From Thermomucor indicae-seudaticae (taxonomy: Eukaryota > Mucoromycota > Mucoromycetes > Mucorales > Lichtheimiaceae): a stretch of 15,807 nt of DNA. This document shows, in pieces, positions 1 to 15,372 of the stretch. Position 1 is the first letter of the stretch. The number at the start of each line of letters is the position of its first letter. Location of the stretch: assembly GCA_000787465.1 (NCBI GenBank), contig JSYX01000718.1, positions 1 through 15,807 of the forward strand, read 5' to 3'. Under the pieces are notes generated by a model. That model saw only the letters and a program-made list of their open reading frames with translations, ran no database searches and was not told the origin of the DNA. The position numbers were made by a program, and so were the translations under genes.

Positions 1-12
1 GAGTTTCAAAAA

Positions 13-30
13 CGGTACAATTTCGTACCG
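13..30. repeat. short hairpin in the partial left-edge intron
   Basis: A perfect 6-bp inverted repeat (CGGTAC, 6-nt spacer, GTACCG) lies in the first 65 bases. Those bases look like the 3' end of an intron: stops occur in the reading frame used downstream, and a TTTATCAG acceptor ends at 65. No function can be assigned; a stem this short may be chance. Confidence 0.3.
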
Positions 31-65
31 GTCGGAAAAGAACCCATTAATAAGTAGTTTATCAG

Positions 66-1190
66 TCTTTCCGACGTTGGGGGATTGCCCACTATGATGA
101 GCATGCCAAGAAGGGCGAAATATCTTACTTCATTGCGTATTTCGAAGCTGACCCGCAATTGGTATACCTGGCAAACACCTTGCAGACGAAAAAGGCAGCG
201 ATTGTGAGCCCCGATGGCGATCTGTTTGCATACCCTGGCGCACTGGATGCAATCGTAAGTGTACAGAAACCCATCTATCTTTTCATTTTATACCTGAATA
301 ATAAAGTTGTACATATCATAGCGCGTGCTTAAGCTCGTCAACAAAGATAATACGACAGCAGGTGCTATGGTGTCCACCAAGAGGACGTTACTAGAGAAAT
401 TAAAACTTGTCAAGGGCGCAGATTTTGTAAAGGTGAGTATGTTTTATGGAACTCTAGTAAACGACTAGATTTTGCAAGGTCTGACGTGAGACGCCTCTTT
501 CGCACAGGCTGAGAAGATTCTTGCTTTGATTTGCGCACTAGCTGGAAATGATTACGCGATGAACGTCTACAGAAGATCATTTGCATGGGCCAAAGACTTC
601 CTAGTTGCAGCACCACAAGAGCTCCCAGCTGATGAGCTTCTCGATAGGGCAAGTGCTGAAGTATTGCTATCTACATACGATGTCATTGCCTTTAACGCAT
701 TTAGCCACAAGACCGATTCATGCAGACGTTACATCAATTTTCAGCCCCTTGTAAACGATCTGGAGCTTCAACCTCTCCATACATCACCAAACTTTGCCGT
801 TAACCTGAATGAAAGCGTACTTGAGAAAATTCGAGAAGCGGCATCGTCATCAAGAGGAGTTGTCCCTCCTGTTGGTACGTTGTAAAAGAATGTGAAACCT
901 GATGTACCCGTTCTGAAAGGCTAGACGTAGTTACAAAATGGCGTCCGAAGCACCCCGAGTGGCCGCGGTACAAGCTCACTTCCGCGGCATTGCCACCTCC
1001 AACTATACTTGCACCAACCGACGACACACGTACGAGGCAAGCTCGTAAAAAATCCAGGCCCCTGAAGGAACCTCGAGCAGAAGTAGTTTTGATGAAATCT
1101 ACGGTGCCCCTCCGCGCACAAGGAAACAAAGGAAGGCTCACTTGGCAGGATCTTCCGAGCCGGTCTCGAAGCAATCCAGAAAAACTGTAG
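66..1190 (+). CDS. XPG/EXO1/FEN1-like 5' structure-specific nuclease, 3' portion, spliced
   Basis: Exons read 66-254, 322-432, 508-874 and 925 onward; earlier exons lie off the left edge. The family cuts flaps and 5' ends of branched DNA using metal-binding acidic residues in a PIN-like fold. Seen here: an EADPQLVYL motif (Glu at 144, Asp at 150), like the EADAQ of EXO1; SPDGDLFAY (Asp at 213 and 219), like the second acidic pair; and LICALAGNDY (Asp at 550), like the GxDY of the helix-hairpin-helix region. A Pro-rich, strongly basic tail follows (RQARKKSRPLK near 1035-1070), a possible nuclear localisation signal. Phases agree across all three introns. In frame 3 the last exon stops at 1188-1190, but by then a second frame (from 1049) is open and runs into the Fanzor coding region, so this may be the N-terminal part of one larger protein. 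The family call rests on motifs only; the EXO1, FEN1 or XPG subgroup is not resolved. Confidence 0.68.
255..321 (+). other. intron in the XPG-like gene (67 nt)
   Basis: GTAAGT donor and TATCATAG acceptor, with a CTGAAT branch-like site. It falls between two complete codons and joins the acidic-motif exon to the exon starting RVLKLVNKDN. Confidence 0.75.
433..507 (+). other. intron in the XPG-like gene (75 nt)
   Basis: GTGAGT donor, CTGAC branch sequence near 481, CGCACAG acceptor; phase 0. It joins KGADFVK to AEKILALICALAGNDY, rebuilding the expected nuclease motif order. Confidence 0.8.
875..924 (+). other. intron in the XPG-like gene (50 nt)
   Basis: GTACGT donor and GGCTAG acceptor, with CTGAAAG just upstream of the acceptor. 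Without splicing the frame stops at 883-885. With splicing it continues as KWRPKHPEWPRYKL and the basic tail, which reads as coding. This splice carries the nuclease frame into the region that leads to the Fanzor frame. Confidence 0.6.
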
Positions 1191-3783
1191 CTTTTACTGC
1201 TGGATTTTTCTCATCGGTGTTGTCGGCTGCGCGTGCACGCGACGAATCAAGCGCGTATCCTTATGCCAGGTTCCTGTGTACGCTTATAAGAAGGGAAGTT
1301 GAAAACTTAAAGCTCATCAAGCAAACTGCTACACAAATGGCCAATCTGGCGCTGCGGCTGGCGTTCGAGGGTGATTTCGAGAATGACTTTCTACACATGA
1401 TATACCGCAACTTTTTCGAATCGGATAGAACCGAGAAAGGCATCCGGGCGAACGTAGAGGGTGCCTCAAAGTCTGGCGGTCAAAAAACCTGGCAATGGAT
1501 ATGCCATATGGCGACGCTTTATCATCACAACGAGCAGGAGAATAAGCTCATCGTACCAACGTATCCAGCACAACATCCCGCGTTGGACCGAAATGGGTCC
1601 ATTGACAATCCCAATAAACTCGTCGCCTATCCCGATGACCCTTCAATCACAGCTCTAGTTATCCTGACGGATGACAACAGACCATTAGGGAATTTGCTAC
1701 TGCTTGCGCGACGGGTCTGGTTCGAAGGCTATGCAGAACGCTTTGATGAAATGCAACGCTACTCGATTTTGAATATCGCCAACGTCTGTTTGGGCAAGCG
1801 TCCCGAGAACTGGACGAAAGGTTTAGAGCCAATATCATAGATCATTTTCTTGCCAGGTACGCGGCGTACCTGTCTGCACGTGTGGCGCTGCGAGCGGGAT
1901 CCATACCAGGTTGGCCAGACGCGGACTCCATCGTGGCGTGGTGGAGACGCCAGGACCGAAGTGCTCAGCTGCTGGACGGTCGGTTGATTAAATATGCGTT
2001 CCCAAAGATTCAATACGCTGCACGCAGACAGATACTTTCGCTCGCAAAGGCAATGCAATACAAAGGAGTGTGCACGCGCGATGAGATCATATTTGCCATC
2101 CAGGAGAAAGCCGTCCGTCTCAGAGCCGTCCCCACGGATTGGCCGAAACATGAACATCTCTCTCTGTATCTCGCAACCAAGATTTTACGGATTCCACTGA
2201 AGACCACGGACGCAGGCTATGAAGTATCAGCGCTTATAGAGAACCAACCTTCGCATGTGCAGAATAATATCCTGCACTTTATTGACTCTCAGCGCACTGA
2301 ACTTGAAGCTGCGTATGGGAAATCGATCGTGGACAAGCAAACGGGGGCAGGACAGGTGGATGTATCTCGTTGTCTTGGACTTACTCAGGCAGCACCTGGG
2401 CAAGGACATATTCGAAAGGAAATGGCTTTCCTTCTTAAAGTGACCATGGACATTCACGCGTCATCCTTTTGTTCCGGGTTTGCGATTGCCCCGACGTGTA
2501 CACGTAGCAACGCGAACGCAAGTTTTTCACGCTCTGCTGTGCATCACATGCTGACACATTTGAACTTGTTTGCGACTACTGCAGAGCAAGCCATTGCTGA
2601 ACAAATGACGTCATCTTACAATCGCTCTGACCAGAAGGATTCTTTGCAGTATCTGTTTGACATATCCCAAATGGCGACGCAAAAACTAGATGAAGCGATT
2701 GTAATTAAGAAAAGAAGATATACAAGCAAGCTACGGCAAATTGTCGCCACAGCAACTGGCGATCATATTGCTCGATATGAACAATGTGATATGTTTTCGA
2801 CGAATGGATTCAAATGCTCCGCTTATTACTTTGACTGGAAGACACCGAAAAGCAAGTATAAGCCTACATTACCGGAAGCAGCCTCACTTGCTGGGTGTCA
2901 GCGGGATGTCCAAGGCATTTTGGGTGTTGATTCTGGCCAAACATTTACAGCAGCAAGCTTCTACATGCCATTACCTGATGGCGTAGACTCAGACCCTTGT
3001 GTGTTACTGAATGTATACGTTACAAGCGGTGTGCGTTTGGCAATCAGAGGGTCAGAACTCTTGGGGGAGTCTCGGAAGCATGCATCTTGGTTGGAGAGGA
3101 ACATTGACCATAATGATCATATAAGACTGGCGCAAGCTGCCATGTCCAAAGGAAGTACAGGTGGAGACCTTCAAGCCTACCTTACCTACGTGCAAGGCTG
3201 GCAGAGCGCCAGTGGAGCTGAAATGCGTAAGTTCTATTCCAAACCATCTGTAATCCGACGAAGCTGGGCAGCATCAAGGTCCAAGACAAAGATACTAGAC
3301 CAAAGCACATGGCTTATTTTGAAAAGTGCGCCTGTTACAGGTTCATGGACTGTATTGGCGATCGGCATGGATGGCTTGGGCAGCCCGGTGGCCTATGGCG
3401 CCCCTGCGTCAATGGAAGGACGGTTTTTAGAGGTGCTACAGAGACATGCCAAGGAGATTGGGTCCTTCCTAGTGGTGAGTGTAAACGAGTACTTCACGTC
3501 ACGTATATGTCCAGCTTGTCTGGCAGTTGGCAACATTAATCAAGTGGAAGCGATGAGAAAGCTTCCCCATGGCAAATGGGGCGGAGACTCTGACTCACTT
3601 GACAATGAAGGGAAGTACGCAATGACGCGTGTGAGACGCTGTCCGGCATGTGGAACCATTTTCCATCGAGATACGATGGCTGCCAATAACATTGCATCTA
3701 TAGCTGGTTGTATTGTCAGATACGGTACTCGTCCAGCTTGTTTCGTTGCACCCAGCACTCCCGTTAAATCAACTACTAGGTGA
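1049..3783 (+). CDS. Fanzor: eukaryotic TnpB-like RNA-guided nuclease (RuvC + zinc ribbon), frame broken in its N-terminal half
   Basis: Fanzors are eukaryotic relatives of TnpB and Cas12: transposon-linked nucleases that use an RNA made near the 3' end of their own gene. The catalytic half is unbroken from 1750 to 3783. RuvC-I is GILGVDSG (Asp 2929-2931). The Glu of VNEYFTS is at 3487-3489, in the place described for the relocated Fanzor glutamate. A four-Cys zinc ribbon follows (CPAC at 3508-3519, CPAC at 3640-3651, with a 40-residue insert). RuvC-III is HRDTMAANNI (Asp 3670-3672). The N-terminal half (about 230 codons, 1142-1840) is in another frame. Phases match one gene if a base is missing near 1767-1770, or if 1788-1840 is a 53-nt intron. 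A similar break near 1087-1090 separates it from the XPG-like exons. An ATG at 938 with a 968-1057 intron is an alternative separate start. Full length would be about 900 codons, or more if fused to the nuclease exons. No transposase partner or terminal repeats were found. Confidence 0.85.
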
Positions 3784-3806
3784 AACCTGGCGTTCACCCC
3801 AGGTTT
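3783..3806 (+). other. 8-bp perfect hairpin overlapping the Fanzor stop codon
   Basis: AAACCTGG (3783-3790) and CCAGGTTT (3799-3806) pair perfectly around an 8-nt loop, starting at the last base of the Fanzor TGA stop. In TnpB and Fanzor loci the guide-scaffold RNA is made from the 3' end of the gene and its downstream flank, so this stem is a candidate part of it. There is no T-run typical of an intrinsic terminator. The RNA role is inference only. Confidence 0.45.
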
Positions 3807-4078
3807 TCTAAAACTACGGGTAAGTTACCAAACATGCCATTTGTAAGCACCGAGTGCTAAAAGAGCCTTCTTTCCCTCTGTCTGCTTCCACATCATCTTC
3901 ACTGCAAATTTTACCAACTGTATGCGCCAATAATTTTTGTGCTTTCCGTGAAACACCCATTGTATCTACACAAACCTTTTTGTACATTTGTCCAAAATTT
4001 CAGCATCAAGCCTGTAAACGACACGTAAAGTGTGAATCGTCTCTTCGTTCTAGTACGTTCTGCTAGCTGAAACACCAG
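3807..4078. other. stretch between Fanzor and the candidate exon, no gene seen
   Basis: AT-rich sequence with no sustained coding frame. A donor-like GGGTAAGT occurs at 3818-3825 and an acceptor-like AACACCAG ends at 4078, so much of it could be an intron. It is also where the guide part of a Fanzor RNA would be expected. No terminal inverted repeat to any part of 1-1200 was found by eye. Confidence 0.4.
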
Positions 4079-4214
4079 CAATCGCTGTTCCTGGATCGAG
4101 GGATTGCCGGAACCAGTGCCAGGTGCCGCCGTCGGTCCTTCAATCCTTGATGTTGCATCACCAGAGGCGACGGTCACATCACACAATAGCTCTGGAGTTT
4201 CTACATTCATTTGA
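4079..4214 (+). CDS. candidate terminal exon of an unrecognised gene
   Basis: After the AACACCAG acceptor, frame 3 is open for 44 codons to TGA at 4212-4214. It is GC-richer than its flanks and reads like a Pro/Ala/Val-rich tail (IEGLPEPVPGAAVGPSILD). It ends 14 bp before the SEM1 start, so it would overlap the SEM1 promoter or 5' UTR. It could be the last exon of the gene whose upstream exons lie at 66-1190, with the Fanzor inside that gene, or an unrelated fragment. The opposite strand is also open from 4210 to 3911, so orientation is uncertain. Confidence 0.3.
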
Positions 4215-4228
4215 TCTTCACCTTCAAA

Positions 4229-4606
4229 ATGTCAGCACCCGCGTTGCAGAATAAGCAAGATCAAAACGAGGATCAAAAGAATCTTCCACAGCTAGGCTCT
4301 TTGGAAGAAGACGACGAATTTGAGGAGTTTGCTGCAGAAGGTCAGAGAATCTTTTTGTTCAACTCTCACTTTTTGCGGAGCTGACGCATTAGCTATAGAT
4401 TGGGGAGAAGGAGAAGAGGACAATGACGATTTTCACTTTTGGGAGGATAACTGGGATGACGACGACATCGAAGACGACTTTTCGAAGCAATTACGGTATG
4501 TTTAGCTCGATAACTTTTGGACGAATCGCCGCACGCTGATCTCGCTCCCTGTTACAGGGCCGAACTCGAAAAGCTCTCACAGCAACCGCAACCTATGAAT
4601 ATGTAA
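4229..4606 (+). CDS. SEM1: SEM1/DSS1, small acidic subunit of the 26S proteasome lid
   Basis: Sem1/Dss1 is a tiny disordered acidic protein that holds the Rpn3-Rpn7 part of the proteasome lid together; it also serves in the TREX-2 mRNA-export complex and binds BRCA2-like proteins where present. Exons 4229-4340, 4399-4495 and 4558-4606 give 85 residues, the usual family length. Seen: the first acidic block [10 protein letters not shown] (residues 25-34), the second block with the conserved tryptophans [10 protein letters not shown] (51-60), [13 protein letters not shown] (63-75) and a short polar tail ending in Met. Both introns are short (58 and 62 nt), carry CTGAC or CTGAT branch sites and keep phase. 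The ATG follows TTCAAA and is the only start that gives the conserved N-terminus. Nothing is broken. Confidence 0.96.
4341..4398 (+). other. SEM1: SEM1 intron 1 (58 nt)
   Basis: GTCAGA donor, CTGAC branch at 4381-4385, GCTATAG acceptor, phase 1. An earlier AG at 4391-4392 is skipped; using the later one rebuilds the conserved AEDW sequence. Confidence 0.9.
4496..4557 (+). other. SEM1: SEM1 intron 2 (62 nt)
   Basis: GTATGT donor, CTGAT branch, GTTACAG acceptor. Splicing rebuilds QLRAELEK, which is conserved in the family. Confidence 0.92.
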
Positions 4607-4939
4607 ACAAGGTTGTACCTCGGCATTTCAACGCACATACCTTCTTCATTGGTCTTATACAGTGTATACTGCGTTCCATTATTCTTCCGGTGTAATTTAC
4701 ATTTTCTCGATAAACGCTACGGTGCACCGTATGTTCTTTGCGAGGCAAATGCACACTAAACGGCCATGACTGATAATTGCCACATGTTATTAAATGTGAC
4801 GTTTCTCCATTCATTATTCCTTGAGTACTATGACTAAAAAAGGGTCACGAAAACGTTTGCAGTTTGGAGAAGACGCACTTAGGCAAAGATAGCTTTTATC
4901 TATATCAAAATACACCCGATATTGCGTCCAAGATGGTCT
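4607..4939. other. intergenic stretch downstream of SEM1
   Basis: AT-rich sequence with no convincing reading frame on either strand; presumably the SEM1 3' UTR and spacer. The minus-strand frame at 4593-4814 overlaps the last SEM1 exon and has no recognisable motif. Confidence 0.5.
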
Positions 4940-6196: not shown

Positions 6197-9100
6197 TCAT
6201 ATGCTTTTGGCCAGGTGATTGTTCAGATAATGGCCAAAGAGTGGATCGAGCGCCGAAATATCACGCAGAGCGCGAATAAATTCTTGGTCAGCCGCCAACT
6301 GCATTCGTTGGGCCTCAAGCGAGGCCTGGGCTTCTGTGAGATATCACAATGAAAAATAGAAATAAAGTCAAAAGAACAAACGAAACTGAATATATCGTGT
6401 TCTATTAGAGTGATAACTCTACTGTATCTATACTGCTCTGAAGATTCCTAATCACAGGCGTTGTCTCTGTCGTCAATTGGAATGAGAACGAACATAACAG
6501 AACAGCTCAGTTCAGTTCAATTCAATTCAATTCATAACAGAAGGTACCATATTAGTTTAGATCAGAATGTGTTGTCAAAGTGTTGTCTGAGCCCCTGATT
6601 CTGGAAGCTAAGATATGCATGAGCCGGAACGTGGTGCGTAATCGAATTTACCACAGTAACAATTGACACTCAGAAGACAGAGCTGGATAATGGTCCAGAA
6701 ACCAGGTATGGGTTTCCCAAAACTTGTAACGAGAAGATGTCTGATACGACAGCTCCTTTGGTAATGCGCTTTACATGGGCTTTTATTGTACTTGTACGAT
6801 CTTCCAGCTTAGCAATGGTTGCCCGAAAGAGCGGACTTCTTTGAGATCGTCCATAGAAGCCAGGAAACAAGGGAGAGAGAAAGCATGAGAGACGTTGCAC
6901 GTAGCGTTGCATTGAGCTATCTCAGAAACAAAATCGCTGGAAAAATGTCTATGACGATAGAAGCTGTTCAAAGCGAACTAAAGAAGAGAGTATATTGTCA
7001 CCGAAAACAAAACGACTGGTTAAATTCATGTTTCCCTTTTAGAAATGGAGTATCTTTTCGATTAGCAGCGCAGAAGAGGGTTTTCACGAATCCCATATGG
7101 TGCGCGTCACCTGGACTCGACGATTTTTTTCGGTTCGTTTCAGCTCTTAGTAGAGGAAGTACAGACAATATGTCGCAAAACTAATACATAAGTATGCTTT
7201 TTATGCATCTAAAGAATATTTATCGTGTATTATCTTTGAGAGATATTGTCTGTGTGTTCCCCGTTAAGAACTGAAATGGATCGAAAAATTGTCGAGTCTA
7301 GGTGACACGAACGATACCATTGAACATTTTTCTTTTCCATGAAGTCTTTATTTCGGAGTGCCTCGATCATCTGCACTTATTTTCGAGTCGAGGTATGCTC
7401 ATCTAAATTCCTCGCCACTTCATCATGAACCTACTGTCATACTTGATAATTGCATCATTGGAGGAATTACTTTTAATCAAATAAGGTGGTAAAACCCCAG
7501 AACTCGGATTGGATGTAGTATGTGGGCATGACTGAGCATCGGATAAATAGACACATATGCATATATTGTGTACAATTCATCTGCGTAGCTATTGCCATTT
7601 ATGGTAGAAAGATCTCGGCTTGATGGATGAGTACAGGGAAGATAGAGCAGGAAAACTAGATTTATTTCATATTGCAAATTACGATTGTATGCCACAAACC
7701 CCAAGACATTAGGGTTACGACCGACTTGAGGTCTATCAGATTGTTAAAAATCCATTTTGCCGACTCTGCTGCTGTCAGTGGAGTTCCATTTCGATCTGTC
7801 AGTCTCCGATATTCTCATAGCTCGATTTTGAGAATTGACTACTCATTATATTTTCGTGCGGATCACTCGCGAGACATTTGAATCAACATGAAGAATCCCC
7901 TCAAACATTTTGATTATTTACAACTTAATCACCATCGTCCTGCTCAATGCAGGACATATAGCAGTAACATATATATATATATATATAGAAAGAGAGAGAG
8001 AGAGATCTGGCCAAAAAGATCCACTCCTTACTTTTTGCTTTCTGCTGCTTCACACAGAGCCTCCAGCGACATTCTGACTTGATAAACTATAAGAATCCAC
8101 TTCCGGAAACACAATTCTGTCTTTTTCTGATGGGCTTATTATATTCTTGAGTGAGGAAGGAACAAAAAAGTAGTAGAAAAATGGCCAAGATCACGGAGCT
8201 TCAAGCTTAATTTTTATTCTAGATAGTCCATGTCCATAGCGTCCACTGCATCTGCATCTTCGCTTTAACTCTCTGAAATTTCGTCACCGCCAGCTGATCC
8301 TTGCTTTAAGTCCTGAGGGTACTATCTACGGTACTCTTGATTCTCTTTGAAGGACTTATTCCATAAGGGATCAGCCGGCTCGGCTTAAGTTTAACGAATA
8401 GCTGAAACCTAGGTCGCGAAGGTATCTACGAAGAGTCCTGTCAGCAACAACGAAATCCAAGTTGAAAAGCTCCATTCCAATGATACCTGAGTTTAGGGTC
8501 ACGCCGTTTTGGTTGCCTTTCATAATAACTTCGCCTACGGCTGTGACGAACGTTGGGTCCAGCTGCTTTTTCGGACGCCCAATCTTCAATTGATCGCGCA
8601 TTTTGTTCTCATGGCTGCAACGAATTGCCTCCTGCGCGACCGTCTCAGATACGCCAGTAGCCTCAGCAAGGCGCTTGCGCCTCGAGAAGTTCTCCCTCGA
8701 CTTTGGTCTCACGTTATGAGCCTCCAAGTACCAGTGAGCCCTGACGAGCATCTTGAATTCATTTCCAGTCAGAGGAGCTCCATCACGTATAAATGAGTCG
8801 CGAGTTATAGTAGAGAGTTAATATTTTACAAGAAGGCATATTAGAGAGAGAAGAAAGTTTTTCACTTAAAAGCCAGAGGGCACTTTCTAATAAGAATCAC
8901 GAGTTGTCTTAAGAGCCAAAGACAAGGGTCAATTTGCGGAGTGGATCTTTTTGGCCAGATCTCTCTATATATATTATTGCTTTTTATACCTCGCCTGCAC
9001 AATTCTCGTGCTAATCCGGCGGTCAACCTTCTCGAGCATTTCTGAAAGTTGAACGATCCGACGTAGTCCCAACAGTAGTCGTTGCCACTATAATCGCCTG

Positions 9101-12925: not shown

Positions 12926-13366
12926 ATGGAATTTGCATCGTTTGTCCGCCAGTTTATTGCGAAAGAATGGCACGTATCCAGTTTCATTGCAGCAAGGGAT
13001 AGATAGCTTTGTCTTTACTCGCATTGACGTTGTTACTTCACCCTACAGGTACTTCGAGCTCCACTGATTTCAGGCCTACCAAAATGGTTCATATCCTGTG
13101 AAACTGTGTCGGGGACTTGCTTAGGGGCTCTACACAAAACGAAGCTAGTAGTTGAAACCCTTAGTATTTACAGTAAAGTAGACCTGCGCCAAGTGTTTGC
13201 TTAACGAGAAGAAACTGATTCTATCGGTATACAAGCCGTCGACCAGATGGATAAAGCGTCGCGATTAAAATGTCTGCGGATTACAGCTGGTGAGATCAAC
13301 CAGAAGGGGCTTGTACGAAAATATCAGAAGAAACGTGAGCGAAGAAAGGCATCTAAAAGTGATATT
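12926..13366 (+). CDS. tentative exons of an unrecognised gene divergent from ERG8
   Basis: ATG at 12926 begins MEFASFVRQFIAKEWH. A GTATCC donor at 12974 and a CCCTACAG acceptor ending at 13048 join it in phase 0 to a frame starting VLRAPLISGLPKWF and continuing HKTKLVVETLSIYSKV. A single TAA at 13202-13204 then interrupts the same frame, which carries on as QAVDQMDKASRLKC and a strongly basic stretch, KYQKKRERRKASKSD, up to a GTAAGT donor at 13367. The TAA is either the true stop (67 aa), lies in a very short GTAAAG intron, or is a mutation. The LINE entered just downstream of the donor. No family is recognised. Competing frames overlap the first exon. Confidence 0.35.
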
Positions 13367-13380
13367 GTAAGTTATTGCAC

Positions 13381-13406
13381 TGGATTTTTCTTGGATATTT
13401 GCGCCC
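13381..13406 (+). repeat. dispersed repeat, copy B, left part (before the LINE)
   Basis: Carries the TGGATTTTT and GGATATTTGCGC blocks of copy A. It is continued after the LINE at 15609, so copy B was present before the LINE arrived. Confidence 0.7.
13393..13406 (+). repeat. LINE target site duplication, left copy
   Basis: GGATATTTGCGCCC, 14 bp, is identical to 15595-15608. The bases on either side differ, so the duplication is exactly delimited and fixes both ends of the insertion. Confidence 0.88.
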
Positions 13407-15372
13407 TCTATCTGGTGCCCTCGCACCCATACTGTCTAACCTTTTCACACTATGCTGGCGTTGGAGTCAGGTCCCCGTCCAGTGGCGTGTCGCCCAGGTT
13501 GTCCCGATCCACAAAAAAGACTCGCCATCCGACTCTGCCAACTTTCGACCTATTAGCCTCACCAGTATCTTACGCAAAATCATGGAACATTGCTTCAAGC
13601 CTGTCCTTCAAGCCACTGCGCCTCCATTGGATATTGCCCAGGGCGGCTTTCGAGAAGCTCGCGGAACCTTGGACCAGGCGCTCTGCTTACACGAACTTTG
13701 CAATCTTCACAAACACCGCACTGGATCACCACCCGTAGTAGCCTTCCTGAACATCAAATCAGCCTACGATACAGTGGACCGCGAAATTATCTGACAAGCT
13801 CTACGAAACTTTAATGTTCCATCTCCATTATATTATCTGCTGAAACATTTGTTCGACTCAGTCTTTATAGAAGTACTCATCTCTAGTGCTACCTCTCGCC
13901 GATTCTGCCCTGTTACAGGGGTTTTGCAAGGATCTGTACTTTCCCCCTTCCTGTATTCCCTTTACATCAGCTCCCTTCCCCATGTTCTTCGGCAGGCGGA
14001 GGACAGCTTTCGGGCTACACAATTTCAACACTTTCAGCAACCTTTTGACCACTTGCAAGTCGATGGTCTACGTATCAATAGTCTTCTTTACGCCGATGAC
14101 GTCGTCCTTATAGGCACCTGGGGCACCATGCCGACTCTCTTAGCAGCATGTGAACGCCATAGCCTTGAGCTCGGCTATCGATGGAATCCTACCAAATGTG
14201 TTGTCCTCGCCAACCCGAACCATGCTTCTACTTATTCGCCCGCCACTCGAGCTTTATTGGACGTCTATTCCAGAGGCTGACACCTTCAATTACCTCGGTA
14301 TCCCTTTCAATAATTTGAGCGCCATCGACACGAAGCGGCTGCTCGAACAGAACACTCAGAGGGCGCACCGTAGTATGCAAGCCATGCGCTCTATAGGGCT
14401 GAGTGCCACCGGTTTTAATCGGCTTCTTGCTTCCCCCTTATACCAACAATTCATCTGACCACAGCTTGAACATGGATTAGCGATTCAGCGCCTTACTGCG
14501 ACGCAACTGAAAATCCTTGACGACGCCCAAGCCAACTGTATGCGCTCAATATATGGCGCAAAGAGCCACACCTCCACAGCTGTTATGCTCCATCTTAGCA
14601 ACATCCCTCCCATGGCCGTTAGGGTCGCTACCCTCCAAGCGAAGTTCTTGTACCGCTCAACCTTTCTACCAGCCGACGCCCTCCTACAATGTCTGATTCC
14701 ACGGCTGCAACAAGAACAGACGAGCTTGTTTCGCCGACTTGAAAGTATCGCCTATGGACACGCCTACCACGGCCTCACACCTCAATAGACACAAAAACGT
14801 TGAAGCGGGAGATACAGGCTCTCCGATGGGAACTCTTTGCTGCTCGGCGAGCCAGCAGTGGATCTAAGCTCTTACGCGCATGCCGTCCAACACTAGGTCC
14901 TGATCCTATCCTGTGGATCCCGATGTCTCGTCCTGAAAGAAGCCGTTGCCTCCGCTGGAGACTTGGCTGGATGTCCAGCGGGAAACCGTGGCCTTGTCGC
15001 AACTGCCCCGAGGGAGCCCACTTCAGTCGTACACATGCCATCCAATGTCTAAAAGCCCACCAGCGCCTTCGTGTCCCAGTGCTGGTCACTGACCCGATCT
15101 CCTATGTCCTTAACCAGCTACCGACCCACCCACTGTCTAATGTGCGTGCAAGAAAATATTGGAGCGTTATCTGGCCGGCCGTCTGTGCCCTTTTACTAGA
15201 AATCGACAAGCTGTGTCATTCACCTGAGGACTTCCGTCCGGGTCCCCCTACACCCACCGCCTCACGAAGCAATAGTTTCTTGCTCTGGCTCGAGCCCATA
15301 TCAACAGCAATAGCCCACCCACCGCCTCCGAGTGTTTCTCTTGATTCCCCCTTGTCCATTTCATCGCAATAA
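13407..15372 (+). pseudogene. broken LINE reverse transcriptase with C-terminal zinc knuckle
   Basis: Reads in order: VAQVVPIHKKDSPSDSANFR and PISLTSI; GGFREARGTLDQAL; AFLNIKSAYDTVDR; TGVLQGSVLSPFLYSLY; and the polymerase core LLYADDVVLIG (YADD at 14089-14100). A long thumb/connection follows (FNYLGIPF), then a Cys-His knuckle, CRNC...HFSRTHAIQC, near 14995-15050. The expected DDE-free RT order is complete, though the first residue of the catalytic AFLNIKSAYD motif is Asn where Asp is usual. Breaks: in-frame TGA at 13792-13794 and 14456-14458; a frame 1 to 2 change between about 14235 and 14280; and a return to frame 1 between about 14750 and 14788. The last frame ends with TAA at 15370-15372. 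A functional protein is not possible. Confidence 0.88.

What the first reader, a model, noticed from the sequence alone, without database searches (positions are those of the whole stretch)
66..3783. Flap-type 5' nuclease exons reading into a Fanzor: possible two-nuclease fusion
Seen: spliced exons with XPG/EXO1-type acidic motifs (EAD at 144-152, PDGD at 210-221, GNDY near 544-555) lead through an in-phase intron and a basic linker into the same region and strand as a Fanzor with an intact RuvC centre. No second promoter gap separates them; the frames even overlap at 1049-1190. Known: Fanzors are RNA-guided DNA nucleases, and XPG-family enzymes trim flaps and 5' ends. Inferred: one protein, or a tightly coupled pair, could cut at a guided site and process the ends, or the nuclease could aid mobility of the element. 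I know of no described XPG-Fanzor fusion.
Basis: partly seen in the sequence, partly recalled or inferred. Interest (0 to 1): 0.88.

Follow-up and report, generated by a model that had tools for sequence, protein, structure and literature searches.

The report
Fanzor fused to EXO1-like 5' nuclease
In one eukaryotic genome, probably a fungus, an RNA-guided DNA cutter of the Fanzor kind is repeatedly joined to a second DNA-trimming enzyme resembling human exonuclease 1, which looks like a natural version of the cut-and-trim genome editors that people have built by hand; the copies examined are decayed and no activity has been tested.

Summary
Window 66-874 holds XPG-type exons; a six-locus profile of this module matches human EXO1 at E 7e-12, acidic residues aligned. 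Window 1049-3783 holds a Fanzor-like protein with RuvC D-E-D and zinc ribbon. In this copy the XPG exons do not read into the Fanzor: the XPG frame stops at 1190 and the Fanzor frame breaks again near 1750. It is a decayed copy at a contig edge.

The pairing itself is real and old. Genome-wide searches with the XPG module found it on 21 contigs (one host-type XPG contig dropped); 13 of 21 have a Fanzor downstream on the same strand. Nine compared copies share only about 25-55% identity. Two loci carry both halves in one ORF (L022 4077-4646, L020 1718-2548). In two further families one linker is in frame with XPG in one copy and with Fanzor in its sister (C134/C89, C187/C65). I infer one ancestral XPG-Fanzor polypeptide.

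Best mechanism (inferred): guided cut plus local EXO1-like 5' resection, favouring homology-based copying. My paper searches found no description.

The parts
66..254 (+). XPG-like exon A: EAD (144-152) and PDGD (210-221); upstream XPG-N part lies off the contig
   Evidence: XPG_I E 0.0056 for this exon; XPG profile E 2.9e-28; the window is one of the six rows of that profile
322..432 (+). XPG-like exon B
   Evidence: intron 255-321 GTAAGT..ATAG
508..874 (+). XPG-like exon C: GNDY (544-555) and C-terminal part of the module
   Evidence: introns 433-507 and 875-924
925..1190 (+). Basic linker in the XPG frame, stop at 1188-1190
   Evidence: open in this frame, no close match to the linkers of other loci
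1049..1840 (+). Fanzor N-terminal part, other frame; conserved block SRKTVAFTAGFFSSVLSA at 1175-1228; no ATG before the block in this frame
1750..3783 (+). Fanzor central and C-terminal part, third frame (677 aa): RuvC D 2929-2931, E 3487-3489, D 3670-3672; CxxC 3508-3519 and 3640-3651
   Evidence: PF07282 E 8.1e-11; 99% identical protein P0009 in an independent assembly

Best explanation
The locus is a decayed copy of a family of mobile-element proteins in which an N-terminal EXO1/FEN-type (XPG superfamily) 5' nuclease is joined through a basic linker of about 100 residues to a Fanzor-like RNA-guided nuclease. Shown: both domains, their fixed order and strand, the open frames across the junction in some copies, and conserved catalytic residues in both halves. 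Inferred: the Fanzor half makes a guided double-strand break, the tethered EXO1-like half trims or resects the 5' strands at that break, and the resulting 3' single-stranded ends favour repair from a homologous chromosome that carries the element, so the element is copied or retained (a cut, resect and copy cycle). My estimate is about 0.87 for the ancestral fusion and about 0.45 for this mechanism.
For: Homology: XPG profile to human EXO1 E 7e-12, with D78, E150, D152, D171, D173 and D225 (my numbering, read off the printed alignment; their catalytic role is recalled) opposite acidic residues of the module; EAD, the second D of DGD and the D of NDY are invariant in all six rows. Fanzor D, E, D and zinc cysteines invariant in all five rows. 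Recurrence: 13 of 21 contigs with the module have a Fanzor downstream on the same strand; chance estimate for 14 of 22, counting C368, 4e-31 under uniform placement. One ORF across both halves: L022 4077-4646 matches XPG C-terminal sequence of C134 (E 1e-6) and Fanzor N-terminal sequence of C89 (E 1e-5); L020 1718-2548 likewise aligns along its length with the L029 composite. Chance of those linkers staying open 0.006 and 0.003. Bridges: a 20-residue linker identical in C134 and C89 is in frame with XPG in one and with Fanzor in the other; a 42-residue linker, 60% identical, does the same between C187 and C65. In 4 of 9 loci no ATG precedes the conserved Fanzor N block in its frame. In seven loci the gap between domains is about 295-465 bases. 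The nested clade ((window,C8),(C198,C209)) appears in both the XPG and the Fanzor-N tree. Analogy: a Cas9-human EXO1 fusion raised HDR and lowered NHEJ (PMC11107001, abstract seen).
Against: No copy examined is intact from end to end; frame breaks or in-frame stops occur in the window, L022, L025, L029, L033 and L041. 8 of 21 contigs with the module show no Fanzor; two of those end within 235 bases, but C156 has 1.0 kb downstream with a C4-like linker and no Fanzor. 7 of 18 contigs with the Fanzor N part show no XPG module, one of them (C165) with 5 kb upstream in hand. dN/dS of the one close pair is 0.67 over 242 codons, 1.14 over the XPG-C and linker segment, so no clear recent constraint. 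Correlation of XPG and Fanzor-N identities over 36 pairs is not significant (rho 0.20, p 0.20). Whether XPG modules resect or only bind DNA is unknown. The glycine-rich turn after GCDY in EXO1 is replaced here.
Confidence: 0.6

Rival explanations
1. Two adjacent genes of one mobile element, an XPG nuclease and a Fanzor, transcribed together or separately, acting as partners but never one polypeptide.
For: In the window and L041 the XPG frame ends in a stop that overlaps the start of the Fanzor frame. In 5 of 9 loci an ATG exists upstream of the Fanzor N block in its frame. The 37 Fanzor zinc-ribbon hits outnumber the pairs.
Against: Two ORFs span both halves, two linker bridges exist, 4 of 9 loci have no such ATG, and the gap is short.
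Confidence: 0.15
2. The XPG part is a non-catalytic DNA-binding or targeting module that steers the Fanzor to flaps, forks or 5' ends rather than cutting.
For: The turn after GCDY that EXO1 keeps as GIG reads differently here, and one acidic residue of the DGD motif is N in L022, so activity could be altered or lost in some copies.
Against: EAD, the second D of DGD and the D of NDY are invariant in six diverged loci, as expected of an enzyme.
Confidence: 0.2
3. A chance capture of a host XPG gene next to a Fanzor that was multiplied by transposition without function.
For: All copies seen are decayed; capture of host genes by mobile elements is common (recalled).
Against: The pairs share about 25-55% identity yet keep order, motifs and linker position, which needs a long shared history under selection.
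Confidence: 0.08
4. The frame breaks are sequencing or assembly errors and the window gene is intact.
For: The two window breaks lie at short runs of A or near them.
Against: Sister loci carry whole in-frame stop codons of several kinds and larger insertions. A 99% identical protein from an independent assembly starts downstream of the breaks and so does not decide it.
Confidence: 0.15

Closest known systems
Fanzor1 RNA-guided nucleases (Spizellomyces SpuFz1, Parasitella PpFz1)
   Same: RuvC D-E-D with the glutamate just before the zinc ribbon, zinc ribbon, multi-copy in a eukaryotic genome; profile matches PpFz1 E 6e-4 and SpuFz1 E 0.07, bacterial LaTranC E 9e-5 being the best
   Different: Motif is DSG, DFG or DIG in place of DPG (against PMC10711439 section 23); fused XPG domain; N-terminal block SRKxxxxxAGxxSSVLSA
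Exonuclease 1 / FEN1 / XPG nucleases
   Same: MG start and DFCC acidic residue in L033 and P0002, VIDGxxxxAK, EAD, DGD and NDY motifs; EXO1 best PDB match by sequence and by a weak fold match of relative P0002
   Different: Fused to a Fanzor; multi-copy; divergent turn after the last aspartate
Engineered exonuclease editors (Cas9-EXO1, PMC11107001; T5exo-ErCas12a, PMC8945719)
   Same: A guided nuclease tethered to a FEN-superfamily 5' nuclease (superfamily placement of T5 exonuclease recalled)
   Different: Man-made, Cas9 or Cas12a rather than Fanzor; seen as abstract and outline and as a search listing
Viral Mariner elements with Fanzor1 plus a separate endonuclease gene (Bao and Jurka 2013)
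   Same: A Fanzor accompanied by a second nuclease in one element (passages seen)
   Different: Separate genes with GIY-YIG or restriction-type nucleases; the paper's text has no occurrence of XPG

Membership tests
Fanzor / TnpB superfamily | RuvC D-E-D with glutamate six residues before the first CxxC (Ealt) | tested here: met
   invariant in five of five rows; definition from PMC10711439 section 23
Fanzor / TnpB superfamily | Zinc ribbon of the TNB type (PF07282) | tested here: met
   42.4 bits, cut-off 26.3
Fanzor in the sense of Yoon et al. 2023 | DPG motif at RuvC-I | tested here: not met
   DSG, DFG, DFG, DFG, DIG in the five aligned rows; DFG also in L021 and L034; so I call it Fanzor-like
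Fanzor | Guide RNA and RNA-guided cleavage | not testable with these tools
   no Rfam match in the window; no guide RNA could be defined from decayed, diverged copies
XPG/FEN/EXO1 superfamily | Acidic active-site residues in XPG-N and XPG-I | tested here: met
   one of the two DGD aspartates is N in L022; XPG-N part seen in sister loci, not in the window
XPG/FEN/EXO1 superfamily | Pfam XPG_I over its cut-off | tested here: inconclusive
   window 21.9 bits, below 24.9; sister loci 27.7 and 28.7, and C65, C134, C187 and C431 frames over it
XPG/FEN/EXO1 superfamily | Helix-turn-helix with glycine-rich turn after the last aspartate | tested here: inconclusive
   region aligns to EXO1 but the GIG turn is replaced
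Single XPG-Fanzor polypeptide | One open frame across the junction | tested here: met
   met in L022 and L020 and by two linker bridges; not met in the window copy
Transposable element | Defined ends, target duplications, transposase | tested here: inconclusive
   DNA search with window 1-4200 found no second copy of the gene at DNA level, only short flanking matches; ends not defined

The most novel reading that the evidence does not exclude
A natural, single-chain RNA-guided cut-and-resect enzyme: a Fanzor-like nuclease that carries its own EXO1-type 5' exonuclease, so that each guided break is pushed away from end joining and into homology-based copying. This would make it a selfish genetic element with a built-in exonuclease editor.
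Probability: 0.42. Interest if true: 0.93.

Novelty: new variant of a known kind. Interest (0 to 1): 0.8.

Why it matters
The biological role of Fanzors is unknown (stated in PMC10432273, passage seen). A second nuclease that is repeatedly fused to one, with its active site kept, is a direct clue: it suggests that what matters after the guided cut is how the ends are processed. It makes the cut-then-copy idea testable by mutating one active site at a time. It would also be a natural counterpart of editors that tether EXO1 or T5 exonuclease to Cas nucleases, and a possible source of compact eukaryotic cut-and-resect tools.

Tried and rejected
Rejected: that the pairing is a one-off accident at this locus. 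Rejected: that the XPG exons are an ordinary host repair gene. The Pfam XPG_I search gave 12 hits in this genome, and the module groups apart from the stronger hits; C30, a host-type XPG hit, was dropped from the counts. Considered and left open: an intron between 1030 and 1148 that would join the two frames in the window; its donor is weak and it is longer than the three other introns (one search lists those). Considered: programmed frameshifting; the shifts in the window and in L041 go in different directions, so it is not supported.

Led nowhere: protein database search with the fused profile found one hit, an N-terminal Fanzor exon (P0001), among 7994 scored of a capped candidate list, so absence of an intact fusion elsewhere is not shown. 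The XPG profile found P0002 in an ENA contig and EXO1 proteins; the Fanzor profile found P0009-P0011. Three scans of viral contigs gave no confirmed relative. The single-sequence fold of the Fanzor ORF is useless (mean pLDDT 34). The fold of relative P0002 is mediocre (pLDDT 64.5); its ten best PDB matches are human EXO1, but the TM-scores are only about 0.3. No tRNA and no Rfam match in the window. The first open-frame test of the L020 linker was run in the wrong frame and redone. The organism was not identified: the rRNA search did not complete.

Papers: Fanzor with XPG, 0 papers; TnpB with exonuclease, fused and natural fusion, 0; Fanzor with exonuclease, transposon and fungi, 2, of which PMC6338049 was seen in passages and PMC11931038 only as a listing; Fanzor with flap endonuclease, 2, passages seen; Fanzor with EXO1, 1 (passages on other terms seen). 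PMC11071296 uses the phrase 'candidate Fanzor flap endonuclease homologs' for genes of two viral contigs without describing a fusion in the passages seen. bioRxiv proper and subscription papers are not held.
Full report
What is in the window. It is eukaryotic and probably fungal; that rests on short introns and gene content and was not tested, because the rRNA search did not complete. Three exons at 66-254, 322-432 and 508-874 encode an XPG-type module, with introns of 67, 75 and 50 bases after them. A fourth exon at 925-1187 is a basic linker that ends at a stop. A Fanzor-like protein follows on the same strand, in frame 2 from 1049 to 1837 and in frame 1 from 1750 to 3780. As assembled, this copy cannot make one protein from end to end.

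The XPG half. The exons of the window alone match Pfam XPG_I at E 0.0056 for exon A and 2.3e-4 when spliced, below the family's cut-off. Spliced parts of two sister loci exceed it. A profile of six loci matches human exonuclease 1 at E 7e-12 and archaeal FEN1 at 1.6e-4; in the printed alignment the EXO1 residues at 78, 150, 152, 171, 173 and 225 stand opposite D, E, D, D, D and D of the module (their catalytic role in EXO1 is recalled). EAD, the second D of DGD and the D of NDY are invariant in all six rows; the first D of DGD is N in L022. The full N-terminus, beginning MGLKGLHAFL, is seen in C134 (L033) and in the relative P0002 from another assembly. The glycine turn that follows GCDY in EXO1 is replaced.

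The Fanzor half. The TNB zinc ribbon matches PF07282 at E 8.1e-11. In five aligned loci the RuvC-I aspartate, the glutamate shortly before the first CxxC, the RuvC-III aspartate and the zinc cysteines are invariant. The motif at RuvC-I is DSG, DFG or DIG; Yoon et al. [quoted passage not shown] A profile of this region matches LaTranC (9e-5), Parasitella Fanzor1 (6e-4), viral L79 (0.019) and SpuFz1 (0.07) among solved structures, while the window ORF alone matched none at E up to 1. I therefore call it Fanzor-like with the Ealt active site.

Recurrence. The genome has 37 TNB hits. Searches with the XPG module of C134 and C198 found it on 21 contigs after dropping C30; these queries come from Fanzor-linked loci, so they favour this subfamily, and a few hits are weak (C300 at E 0.006, C391 at 0.003). 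On 13 of 21 (C134, C65, C89, C671, C4, C591, C198, C209, C645, C8, C431, C272, C300) a Fanzor match lies downstream on the same strand. Of the other eight, C187 and C432 reach a contig end within 235 and 129 bases, C354 within about 1.1 kb, C156 has 1.0 kb downstream with a linker like that of C4 but no Fanzor, and C551, C241, C391 and C524 show no Fanzor hit on the contig. C368 is a further pair, found only in a fetched Fanzor flank. Seen from the Fanzor side, 11 of 18 contigs with the Fanzor N part carry the module. A second, more diverged group of Fanzors (C174, C184, C415, C374) has no XPG module in 6-7.5 kb upstream, 0 of 4. Under uniform placement, 14 pairs among 22 modules, counting C368, has a chance of 4e-31.

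One polypeptide. In C4, the ORF L022 4077-4646 (190 aa) holds both the end of the XPG module and the start of the Fanzor. Against raw single ORFs of other loci its first 51 residues match the XPG-side ORF of C134 (E 1e-6) and its last 42 match the Fanzor-side ORF of C89 (E 1e-5). In C209, L020 1718-2548 (277 aa stop to stop) likewise runs from the last XPG residues into the Fanzor N part. The chance that the linkers stay open is 0.006 and 0.003. C134 and C89 are about 90% identical in DNA over the matched pieces. A 20-residue linker stretch, identical in both, belongs to the XPG frame in C134 and to the Fanzor frame in C89. The linker of C187, in frame with XPG, is 60% identical over 42 residues to the linker of C65, which is in frame with the Fanzor. 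In 4 of 9 loci (window, L025, L029, L054) no ATG precedes the conserved Fanzor N block in its frame. In seven loci the gap between the domains is about 295-465 bases. Results against: every locus modelled has stops or frame breaks somewhere; dN/dS in the close pair is 0.67, and 1.14 in the XPG-C plus first linker segment; the correlation of identities between halves over 36 pairs is not significant (rho 0.20, p 0.20), although both trees recover ((window,C8),(C198,C209)) with supports of 0.885-0.99.

How it most likely works. Saito et al. write that the role of Fanzors is unknown and that a TnpB break lets an insertion sequence copy itself by homologous recombination; SpuFz1 cuts leave 5' overhangs (PMC10432273, passages). 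EXO1 removes the 5' strand at breaks and so exposes 3' single strands for recombination (established knowledge, recalled). A Fanzor that carries such an enzyme would cut an allele that lacks the element and at once make the ends fit for copying from the allele that has it. The man-made equivalent, Cas9 tethered to human EXO1, is reported to raise HDR and lower NHEJ (PMC11107001, abstract). Every step of this mechanism in the natural protein is inferred.

Novelty. Searches of the held papers found no XPG-Fanzor; the library lacks bioRxiv proper and most subscription journals. Bao and Jurka described viral elements in which a Fanzor has a separate nuclease gene nearby (passages). One preprint uses the words 'candidate Fanzor flap endonuclease homologs' for genes in two viral contigs without more in the passages seen. 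I rate this a new variant of a known kind: Fanzor-like, with an unreported fused 5' nuclease and an atypical RuvC-I motif.

Noticed in passing
window 13363-14280, + strand: Reverse transcriptase of a LINE-like element split over two frames (RVT_1 E 1.6e-8 and 7.7e-10).
   Followed up: partly
window 12657-10932, - strand: GHMP-type kinase gene with several exons (GHMP_kinases_N E 3.7e-8); phosphomevalonate kinase by recall.
   Followed up: partly
window 4230-4610, + strand: Small acidic multi-exon gene that resembles SEM1/DSS1 by eye (recalled, not tested), directly downstream of the Fanzor.
   Followed up: no
window 8371-8817, - strand: 148-aa frame that looks by eye like the DNA-binding part of a transposase; no Pfam match.
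   Followed up: no
window 3860-4018 and 4039-4183: Short stretches with 93-94% copies on C104 and C108 and an 89% copy on C418, not next to a copy of this gene; nature unknown.
   Followed up: no
L024, L027, L030, L032: A second Fanzor group in the same genome with a different zinc-ribbon signature (NRDxMAAxN) and no XPG module upstream.
   Followed up: partly
L055 (C156) 2203-2469: XPG module followed by a linker 35% identical to that of C4 over 89 residues but without a recognisable Fanzor within 1.0 kb.
   Followed up: partly
P0009, 633 aa: Independent assembly holds a 99% identical Fanzor part with 6 residue differences, so the locus is polymorphic in the population.
   Followed up: no
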